Below, in pieces: positions 142 to 4,498 of a stretch of 7,457 bases of DNA. Source of the stretch: Anaerolineae bacterium. GTDB lineage: Bacteria; Chloroflexota; Anaerolineae; B4-G1. Where the stretch lies: assembly GCA_030612185.1 (NCBI GenBank), contig JAUWOI010000202.1, positions 1 through 7,457 on the forward strand, in the 5' to 3' direction. The notes beneath the pieces are model-generated. The model did not search any database and was not told the DNA's origin. It saw nothing but the letters and a program-made list of their open reading frames with translations. The position numbers and the translations under genes are program-made. Within the stretch, counting starts at the first letter, position 1. Every line of letters starts with the position of its first letter.

Positions 142-177
142 CAGAAACCGGGTTTTTCGGAAAAAACCCGGTTTCTG
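142..177 (-). terminator. 16-bp palindrome just after the operon's last stop codon; possible terminator or dispersed repeat
   Basis: The arm CAGAAACCGGGTTTTT (142-157) pairs perfectly with 162-177 around a CGGA loop, 16 bp without mismatch. It begins eight bases beyond the TAA of the operon's last gene (186-188), where a terminator is expected. However, its T-run is inside the stem rather than after it, so classical rho-independent release is doubtful. Alternatives are an mRNA 3'-end stabiliser or a copy of a widespread CAGAAACC/GGTTTCTG palindrome, which I recall from other bacterial intergenic regions without being able to check. Confidence 0.5.
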
Positions 178-3358: not shown

Positions 3359-4498
3359 TCACCGTTCGCGGCTGAGGAGCATTTGCGCCAGTTCGTGGAG
3401 CGCCAGGGCGGCTGGGCCATGCAGATTCGCCTGGTCCAGCGCGGCCAGTGCCTGGGCATGAAACTCTTGCGCCAGTCGTTCAGCGTATTCGCGGCTATCT
3501 GTCTCTCGCAGCAACTCCGTGGCGCGGTGGACATCGGCTGTTGAGAGCGTCTCCTGTGCCAGTAGCGCGCGTAGTTCCGCGCTTTGTTCCAGGCCGTGGA
3601 GGATAGGGAGCGACTTCTTGCGCCGGGCGATGTCGGCGCCAGCGGGCTTGCCGGTGACGATCGGATCGCCCCAGATGCCCAGGACGTCGTCGCGCATCTG
3701 GAAAGCCAGCCCCAGGTGATGGCCGAAGGTGCGCAGGCTCTTACATTGGGCATCTGGGGCAGCGGCGACGAGGCTGCCCATCTCGCAGGCACATGCCACC
3801 AGCGCCCCGGTTTTTCCCTCGACCATCGTCAGGTAATCTGCGATGGAGATGCTATCGCGGCTCTCGAAGCCGATGTCAAGATACTGGCCGCCAGTAAGGG
3901 CCAGGCAAGTACGGTTGAAAAGATGAAGGGCTGTCACGACCGTCGTAGCAGGCACGGTTCCCTTCGACAGGCTCAGGGCAGGCTCCTTCGACAGGCTCCC
4001 CTCGACTACGCTCGGGGCAGGCAGGGCAGGCTCCTTCGACCCTTCGGCTCCGCTCAGGGCAGGCAGGCTCAGGGCACCGCGCTCGGAGAGCCGCAGCAGG
4101 GCCAGTTGAGCCAGCGCGAACAGCACATCCCCGGCGTTGATCGCCTGAGCCTCCCCCCACAATGCCCAGATGGTGGAGCGACCACGGCGAGTCTTATCCT
4201 GGTCCTCGACATCGTCGTGGATGAGGGAGAAGTTGTGCATAAGTTCGAGGGCGGCTGCGGCGGGCAGTGCCTGCTCCCAATCGCCACCACAGGCTTCACA
4301 GGCAAGAAGGCAGAGCACGGGGCGCACGCGCTTGCCGGTTCGCCCCTGGCAGGGGTTGAACGCCGCGTCGGCCCAGCCCATGTGGTAGCGCAGCATGCCG
4401 AAGAGTCCGGCGTAGCGCGGGTCGGCGGTCTGGACGACGGCGCGCATTTCCGCCTCGAGCGGCGGTAGATAGCGGTTGAAGAATGTTTTGAGCGACAT
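3359..4498 (-). CDS. Polyprenyl (farnesyl/geranylgeranyl) diphosphate synthase with repeat-derived insertion
   Basis: This 379-residue trans-prenyltransferase adds IPP units to an allylic diphosphate. GKRVRP (55-60) binds IPP diphosphate. HDDVED (94-99) is the first Asp-rich motif and is followed by TRRG (103-106). LTGGQYLDI (201-209) and GKTGAL (228-233) are conserved, and QMRDDVLG (267-274) is the second Asp-rich motif. ARRKKSLPIL (291-300) replaces the usual GKxTLP segment. All catalytic residues look intact. Residues 140-179 are not family sequence: they encode a 40-residue repeat array in a variable inter-helix loop. Without it the protein would be about 339 residues, a normal length. 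The chain length of the product is not evident. The start follows a 48-nt gap after the upstream gene and has no good Shine-Dalgarno; the nearest GGAGG lies more than 20 bases away, so coupling or leaderless-like initiation is possible. The stop is 19 nt before the aconitase gene. Confidence 0.93.
   Translation of the reverse strand: MSLKTFFNRYLPPLEAEMRAVVQTADPRYAGLFGMLRYHMGWADAAFNPCQGRTGKRVRPVLCLLACEACGGDWEQALPAAAALELMHNFSLIHDDVEDQDKTRRGRSTIWALWGEAQAINAGDVLFALAQLALLRLSERGALSLPALSGAEGSKEPALPAPSVVEGSLSKEPALSLSKGTVPATTVVTALHLFNRTCLALTGGQYLDIGFESRDSISIADYLTMVEGKTGALVACACEMGSLVAAAPDAQCKSLRTFGHHLGLAFQMRDDVLGIWGDPIVTGKPAGADIARRKKSLPILHGLEQSAELRALLAQETLSTADVHRATELLRETDSREYAERLAQEFHAQALAALDQANLHGPAALALHELAQMLLSRER
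3999..4022. repeat. Nested 24-bp repeat unit, PSVVEG variant
   Basis: This unit carries the imperfect palindrome CCCCTCGACTACGCTCGGGG (3998-4017) followed by CAGG. It interrupts base unit 2 after CCTTCGACAGGCTC. Deleting exactly these 24 bases restores a perfect second copy of unit 1. On the minus strand it encodes PAPSVVEG (residues 160-167) between EPAL and SLSK. The boundary is ambiguous by one C (3998-4021 is equivalent). The site of entry is immediately before a CAGG. Confidence 0.85.
4041..4064. repeat. Nested 24-bp repeat unit, LSGAEG variant
   Basis: This unit carries the imperfect palindrome CCCTTCGGCTCCGCTCAGGG (4040-4059) followed by CAGG. It interrupts base unit 3 after CCTTCGAC; its removal leaves CCTTCGACAGGCTCAGGG, the same 18 bases that open unit 1. 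It encodes PALSGAEG (residues 146-153) between GALSL and SK. As in the other nested unit, entry is directly before a CAGG and the boundary is ambiguous by a single C. Confidence 0.85.

What the first reader, a model, noticed from the sequence alone, without database searches (positions are those of the whole stretch)
3961..4080. Nested 24-bp repeats inserted into each other inside a prenyl synthase gene
Removing 3999-4022 restores a perfect 24-bp duplicate of unit 1. Removing 4041-4064 restores the unit's first 20 bases. This is a direct fossil of insertion within insertion, not simple tandem slippage, because the inserts differ in sequence from their hosts. At the protein level the base is RGALSLSK plus EPALSLSK twice, with PALSGAEG and PAPSVVEG set inside. 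All units are exactly 24 bp, so each event adds eight residues in frame. The base unit and each insert are imperfect palindromes ending in AGGG. This implies a mobilisation process with a fixed 24-bp product, perhaps analogous to the Rickettsia palindromic elements found inside genes.
Basis: partly seen in the sequence, partly recalled or inferred. Interest (0 to 1): 0.85.

Follow-up and report, generated by a model that had tools for sequence, protein, structure and literature searches.

The report
Nested hairpin repeats growing a gene
A 24-letter DNA hairpin that is scattered through many bacteria of one phylum has inserted itself into an enzyme gene and then into its own earlier copies, each copy adding about eight amino acids, and living relatives still show several of the steps.

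Summary
The block at 3961-4076 is three 24-bp units, two of them split by a different 24-bp unit. It lies in a polyprenyl synthase of a Chloroflexota-like contig. Orthologues show 0, +8, +16, +24, +32 and +40 residues at this spot; three close ones are off the 8-residue step. An HdrA-like gene shows empty, single and nested forms, and genome G033 has nested copies in three further genes. Insertion into insertion is well supported.

The unit is a dispersed REP-like element: a covarying 4-bp stem, a GAGC/GTCGA core and an unpaired 5' tag; the core occurs in 122 of 301 Chloroflexota genomes. The tag is neither GTAG nor, in the window clade, CGTC. A fixed 24 bp is not general: tandem periods of 18 and 22 bp occur elsewhere.

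RAYT-like transposases are over-represented in unit-rich genomes (28 of 36 against 82 of 265; post hoc, uncorrected for kinship) but are not flanked by units. The mobilising enzyme is therefore inferred, not shown.

The parts
3359..4498 (-). host gene: polyprenyl synthetase, 379 aa
   Evidence: Pfam PF00348 5.1e-64, two matched stretches
3961..4080 (-). repeat block; 40 extra residues (120 bp) against empty orthologues, outer limits set to within a few bases
   Evidence: residues 143-178 have pLDDT < 50 in a model of mean pLDDT 87, between helices 116-138 and 184-212
3961..3984 (-). base unit 1, intact 24 bp (last in coding order, EPALSLSK)
3985..3998 (-). base unit 2, one part (14 bp)
3999..4022 (-). 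nested insert B, 24 bp (PAPSVVEG), host entered at CCCTG^AGC in coding orientation
4023..4032 (-). base unit 2, other part (10 bp)
4033..4040 (-). base unit 3, one part (8 bp)
4041..4064 (-). nested insert A, 24 bp (PALSGAEG), host loop entered at GAGCCTG^TCGA in coding orientation
4065..4076 (-). base unit 3, other part (12 bp); the first 20 bases of the unit are restored

Best explanation
The block is a stack of five copies of a small REP-like mobile hairpin. The element, in coding orientation, is an unpaired 5' tag (here GCCTG) followed by a bulged hairpin NNCT-GAGC-loop-GTCGA-AGNN. SHOWN: copies are dispersed through Chloroflexota; they lie in frame in conserved genes; in this lineage a copy adds 24 bp; later copies enter earlier copies; the confirmed nested copies enter after a CTG in the non-Watson-Crick part of the host hairpin (stem side xxCTG^AGC, or loop GAGCCTG^TCGA). 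Five of the six reading frames of the unit are open and 24 is a multiple of 3, so genes can survive. INFERRED: movement is by a single-strand (HUH, Y1) REP-associated tyrosine transposase acting in trans, which moves or copies the hairpin into exposed single-strand or hairpin DNA without target duplication. The protein tolerates it because the site is a loop between two helices.
For: Stepwise orthologues 0, +8 (P0021), +16 (P0005), +24 (P0007), +32 (P0006), +40 (window, P0002); the eight bearers form one clade (support 100) with P0021 as sister (98). HdrA: of 121 rows 93 have the empty length, 6 the single unit, 2 a nested one, and DNA-level empty sites are seen in four relatives. G033: nested 24-bp inserts at xxCTG^AGC in three genes, backward control 0 in 42 genomes; fmt there has 17 extra residues against solved Fmt. 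Shuffled-flank control 0.6 against 8. Stem pairs 3 and 4 covary, z 12.0 and 10.9. 22 of 178 units sit at the centre of palindromes with arms of 14 bp or more beyond the stem, 1.0 expected, which fits hairpin targeting. L114-like or L329-like RAYT in 28 of 36 unit-rich genomes against 82 of 265 others, p 1.1e-7; any of the three searches 28 of 36 against 124 of 265, p 5.8e-4.
Against: [quoted passage not shown], counted) only L114/L293 (same ORF), L253 (about 2.9 kb off) and L367 (about 0.85 kb off) hold a real unit. Eight of 36 unit-rich genomes lack all RAYTs searched at the thresholds used, G032 with 67 copies among them (G052 has one weak match). The L329 group scores below both curated cut-offs and was chosen after seeing it in unit-rich genomes; PF01797 alone gives only 20 of 36 against 101 of 265, p 0.049; kinship and assembly gaps are uncorrected. 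The CTG entry point holds for nested copies but not for the primary HdrA site (TCAGGG^, with 0-4 bases of slide); the five confirmed nested junctions are few, and two of them were found with a pattern that presupposes the stem site. Three close orthologues are off the 8-residue step. One unit folds no better than shuffles.
Confidence: 0.62

Rival explanations
1. The units are dispersed hairpins, but local growth in the gene is by replication slippage, template switching and unequal recombination among copies, not by transposition. Nested forms are template-switch products.
For: Tandem arrays with a constant period exist (24 bp in G006, 18 and 22 bp in G191); three orthologues show increments that are not multiples of 8; blocks differ between proteins 98.4% identical elsewhere (P0007/P0008).
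Against: Nested inserts carry a different loop or stem from their host. A switch at the shared CCTG would be expected to give 20 bp without a second CCTG, whereas 24 bp with CCTG repeated is seen (inference). The right-hand junctions share no homology. The single insertion into unique HdrA sequence cannot come from local slippage.
Confidence: 0.22
2. The elements are moved by an unidentified enzyme, as is said for CGTC REPs, and RAYT co-occurrence only reflects lineage.
For: No RAYT flanked by units; 8 of 36 rich genomes without a RAYT at the thresholds used; Di Nocera et al. [quoted passage not shown]
Against: Strong, though uncorrected and post hoc, co-occurrence; a hairpin with tag and mismatches resembles known RAYT substrates (passages of PMC8266576).
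Confidence: 0.3
3. Assembly artefact or low-complexity expansion in one metagenome contig.
For: No whole genome is held for the window.
Against: P0002, from another contig, has the same 40-residue block in a protein 96% identical elsewhere; related alleles come from several sources.
Confidence: 0.02

Closest known systems
REP elements with RAYT/TnpA-REP (GTAG class)
   Same: Short dispersed hairpin with an unpaired 5' tag and stem mismatches; tandem and clustered copies; some copies in genes
   Different: Tag is G-pyrimidines-G (GCCTG, GTTCG) or GCTCA, not GTAG; [quoted passage not shown] nested copies with clean empty sites
CGTC-tagged REPs, including Rickettsia RPE-4 and RPE-6
   Same: Short, in frame within conserved genes, no dedicated transposase known, stem-loop core
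   Different: No CGTC tag and no A-T-first stem in the window clade; that paper lists CGTC repeats in five phyla without Chloroflexi. Some G191 and G242 units do read CGTC just before CTGAGC, there half tag, half stem
Long Rickettsia palindromic elements (105-146 bp)
   Same: In-frame palindromic inserts tolerated by enzymes
   Different: Four to six times longer, terminal inverted repeats; sequences not compared here
IS200/IS605 single-strand transposition
   Same: Insertion beside a short target, hairpin recognition, no target duplication (the last recalled) would fit
   Different: No enzyme shown here; the primary HdrA site does not share the target

Membership tests
REP (RAYT-mobilised, GTAG class) | GTAG tag at the 5' foot of the hairpin | tested here: not met
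   Tag is GYYYG-like: G in 144 of 165 at -9 and in 136 of 165 at -5, from few genomes
REP (RAYT-mobilised, GTAG class) | RAYT gene flanked by cognate repeats | tested here: not met
   149 locus scans, partly overlapping, about 1.5-2 kb each side: no flanking pair
REP-like elements in the broad sense | 20-40 bp dispersed hairpin, many copies, conserved stem | tested here: met
   up to 192 core copies in one genome, control 1; covarying stem
REP-like elements in the broad sense | RAYT present in the genome | tested here: inconclusive
   28 of 36 rich genomes, 8 without; not testable for the window's own genome
CGTC REP / short RPE | CGTC tag, stem starting with A-T pairs, CCA tail | tested here: not met
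   Window units have GCCTG tag and CCCT/AGGG stem; definition from PMC3733652
Long RPE of Rickettsia | 105-146 bp palindrome with terminal inverted repeats | tested here: not met
   24 bp; size range from PMC2229807 passages
IS200/IS605-type insertion | cut next to a fixed short target, no duplication | tested here: inconclusive
   nested copies after CTG, primary HdrA copy not, and its 4-base slide leaves a duplication open

The most novel reading that the evidence does not exclude
A class of tagged REP-like hairpins in Chloroflexota, not described in the papers I could search, is moved in trans by RAYTs that sit elsewhere in the genome, prefers the loops of DNA hairpins, its own copies included, and so makes proteins grow in quanta of eight residues at fixed spots.
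Probability: 0.35. Interest if true: 0.8.

Novelty: new variant of a known kind. Interest (0 to 1): 0.62.

Why it matters
How REP-like elements spread is described in the papers seen as poorly understood (abstract of PMC8266576). Here orthologous genes keep the steps from empty to five units, nested copies are seen in several independent genes, and the entry points inside the host hairpin repeat. That gives exact substrates and target sites on which candidate enzymes can be tested. It also shows a way in which protein loops lengthen in frame.

Tried and rejected
Artefact: rejected (P0002-P0008). Simple slippage for the nested copies: rejected as sole cause (inserts differ from hosts). Target duplication: none flanks the nested copies; in HdrA a 4-base slide (AGGG) leaves it open. 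CTG as a universal target: rejected, the primary HdrA site lacks it. Fixed 24 bp as a general product: rejected. Strong single-strand folding: not found. The Mod insertion in L114 was meant as another empty-site case, but the solved Mod proteins align only beyond the unit, so its empty site is recalled, not tested, and I do not count it. A 20-base junction pattern gave 3 of 301 genomes, of which only L132 came out as nested. A 33-base stem-site pattern found nothing in 20 genomes, but it was one base too long and would have matched the known cases only at its mismatch limit; the corrected 32-base pattern gave 3 of 42 genomes: three nested copies in G033 and, in G102 and G276, single units that are not nested. 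First AlphaFold run with 20 sequences was poor (pLDDT 42.8); the second with 71 was good. Papers: nine searches showed no description of this unit or its peptides; PMC3733652 was read in parts 1-4 of 8 plus passages, PMC8266576 and PMC2229807 only in passages, all others only as listings. The original Rickettsia reports were not seen (recalled).

Full report
WHAT IS THERE. The window is a 7457-base contig with minus-strand genes for a LeuA/homocitrate-synthase-like protein, an aconitase, a polyprenyl synthetase, a squalene/phytoene-synthase-like protein and a type 2 isopentenyl-diphosphate isomerase, then plus-strand genes for an acyl carrier protein and a DUF6485 protein. The homologues of the synthetase that carry an organism name are Anaerolineae, Chloroflexi or Chloroflexota metagenome bins; no whole genome is held for the window. 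Inside the synthetase gene (3359-4498, minus) lie three copies of a 24-bp unit; unit 2 is split by 3999-4022 and unit 3 by 4041-4064. Taking out either 24-bp piece restores the host (24 of 24 bases, and the first 20).

THE ORTHOLOGUES KEEP THE STEPS. The search scored 3231 homologues and listed the best 120. Of these 120, 109 have the empty length, P0072 is one residue shorter, and ten have extra residues: P0001 (the window's own protein) and P0002 +40, P0006 +32, P0007 +24, P0005 +16, P0021 +8, P0003 +29, P0004 +35, P0008 +37 and P0015 +16. P0021's extra residues (DASSLSEEP) read as an eroded unit; P0003, P0004 and P0008 probably carry later small deletions (both inferences). A tree without the insert puts the eight bearers P0001-P0008 together (support 100) with P0021 as sister (98); branching inside the eight is mostly weak (one node 95, the rest 37-55). 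P0007 and P0008 are 98.4% identical outside the block yet their blocks differ by 13 residues. P0015 lies outside this clade; weak support leaves open whether its insert is independent. The block falls between helices 116-138 and 184-212, and residues 143-178 are disordered in a model of mean pLDDT 87; the two solved homologues shown aligned (3nf2, 1wy0) lack the segment.

OTHER GENES. In genome G001 (that of L001, the best of the 80 loci) an HdrA-like gene holds one unit. Of 121 aligned rows (query and the 120 listed hits), 93 are 8 residues shorter (the empty length), 6 have the single 8-residue unit (query and its database copy included), 2 (P0126, P0133) have a second 8-residue unit inside the first, 2 (P0132, P0135) have altered unit-like inserts, and 18 have other lengths, 15 of them the most distant listed. 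DNA of four relatives (L264, L265, L266, L286) shows the empty site: 24 bp stand between TCAGGG and GTGGAG, with 0-4 bases of sliding. In genome G033 three ORFs hold a 24-bp unit inside a unit: fmt (L132/L375), a 622-codon frame (L376) and a 674-codon frame (L377); joining the flanks restores the host core in each, in L377 with the compensated stem CACT/AGTG. Against solved Fmt (5uai) the fmt copy has 17 extra residues in the alignment. Units also lie in long open frames of G022 and G001. Five of the six frames of the unit are free of stops, and peptides of all five are seen in open frames, not all of them proven genes (PALSLSK, PEPVEG, PSTGSGQ, LRQAQ, FDRLR).

WHERE THE NESTED COPIES ENTER. 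In 2,014,960 bases with 305 cores (overlapping loci included), the confirmed nested inserts enter after CCTG of the host: window insert A in the loop (GAGCCTG^TCGA), window insert B and L132 at the stem side (CCCTG^AGC). L376 and L377 enter at the same stem-side point (TCCTG^AGC, CACTG^AGC), but were found with a pattern that assumes it. The HdrA nests fit the stem site at protein level. A repeat family in G242 (L173, L175, L189, L220) fits the loop site, but its reading is ambiguous (20-24 bp) and its copies count as one event. With shuffled flanks 0.6 nested contexts are expected against 8 seen of 191, one of which (L025) looks like chance. The four stem-site inserts read at DNA level are of one subfamily (CCGAG...CGAGGGG). 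The number of independent events is small.

WHAT THE UNIT IS. From 438 unique contexts, 165 with the CT/AG step and most from a few genomes, stem pairs 3 and 4 are Watson-Crick in 91.5% and 81.8% (67% and 45% when re-paired; z 12.0 and 10.9). Pairs 5 and 6 are not paired beyond chance (z -3.1 and 1.4); pairs 7 and 8 show a weaker excess (z 5.4 and 4.6), from the longer palindromes. Upstream stands a G-Y-Y-Y-G-like tag: GCCTG in the window clade and most of G022, GTTCG in G242, GCTCA in G191. G015 carries a variant whose inner G-C pair has become A-T. This is the plan of REP elements: tag plus bulged hairpin. Of 178 units, 22 stand at the centre of palindromes extending 14 bp or more beyond the stem, against 1.0 expected; the 14 printed are all from G191 and G242 and some are paralogous or repeated loci.

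HOW COMMON. The core is in 122 of 301 Chloroflexota genomes, up to 192 copies in G191; the backward control gives at most 2 in any genome. Tandem periods vary: 24 bp in G006, 18 and 22 bp in G191 and about 35-50 bp in G242.

THE ENZYME QUESTION. Y1 transposase (PF01797) is in 121 of 301 genomes; in the 36 genomes with at least 10 core copies it is in 20, against 101 of 265 others, p 0.049. A RAYT like the one in L114 (NCBIfam REP_Tyr_transpos, above its cut-off) is in 16 of 36 against 38 of 265, p 6.8e-5; a second, more divergent group (L329, below the Pfam and NCBIfam cut-offs) in 20 of 36 against 70 of 265, p 7.4e-4; either of these two in 28 of 36 against 82 of 265, odds ratio 7.8, p 1.1e-7; any of the three in 28 of 36 against 124 of 265, p 5.8e-4. 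The second group was picked after seeing it in rich genomes, so this is post hoc; kinship and assembly gaps are uncorrected. Against a role: in 149 partly overlapping RAYT locus scans only L114/L293, L253 and L367 hold a real unit, none as a flanking pair, and G032 with 67 copies has no RAYT in any of the four searches. Published work says TnpA-REP of E. coli cuts at CT next to the hairpin and that a stem bulge is needed (passages of PMC8266576). With the one-base slide the window's nested junctions read CCT^G, which fits but does not prove it; the primary HdrA site does not fit.

VERDICT. Insertion within insertion is real. The element is best called REP-like, with a tag outside the GTAG and CGTC classes of Di Nocera et al. 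(parts 1-4 of 8 read). It works like the short Rickettsia elements but the window units fail their tag test. The searches showed no description of it; only open-licence full texts were searched.

Noticed in passing
L114:1270-1830 (G001:C15): A whole RAYT (REP_Tyr_transpos) is read in frame inside a Mod-like methyltransferase ORF (PF01555), next to three 15-residue tandem repeats (VGSTPGYADVPSASS) and a 24-bp unit.
   Followed up: partly
L206:179, L206:753, L207:8716, L208:1396, L212:3985, L215:397, L220:8715, L221:10025: Units sit at the centre of long palindromes whose arms are unique sequence; either hairpins were targeted or the arms arose with the insertion.
   Followed up: partly
G033 (L375, L376, L377): Three nested units in three genes of one genome, all of the CCGAG...CGAGGGG subfamily entering at xxCTG^AGC; a good system for an unbiased scan.
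   Followed up: partly
G006 contig C251, 8901-8971 and 13399-13541: Head-to-tail arrays of the unit with a 24-bp period (one slot, 13447, not matched).
   Followed up: no
P0015: A prenyl synthase outside the repeat-bearing clade has a +16 insert (AVSLSPALSPVEVKGT) at the same spot, possibly an independent event.
   Followed up: partly
window 142-177: Palindrome CAGAAACCGGGTTTTT...AAAAAACCCGGTTTCTG just past the stop of the minus-strand gene, terminator-like by eye.
   Followed up: no
L328-L333, L338-L342: A divergent RAYT-like group (RRSIRLKGYDYSQ..FVVMPNHVHGII), some members with repeat-rich inserts in mid-domain, poorly caught by the Pfam model.
   Followed up: partly
G015: A frequent subfamily CCTTCAACAGGTTCAGGGCAGGC replaces the inner G-C pair by A-T.
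   Followed up: no
L237:3825-4387: Four units within about 560 bases in G022, in overlapping open frames.
   Followed up: no
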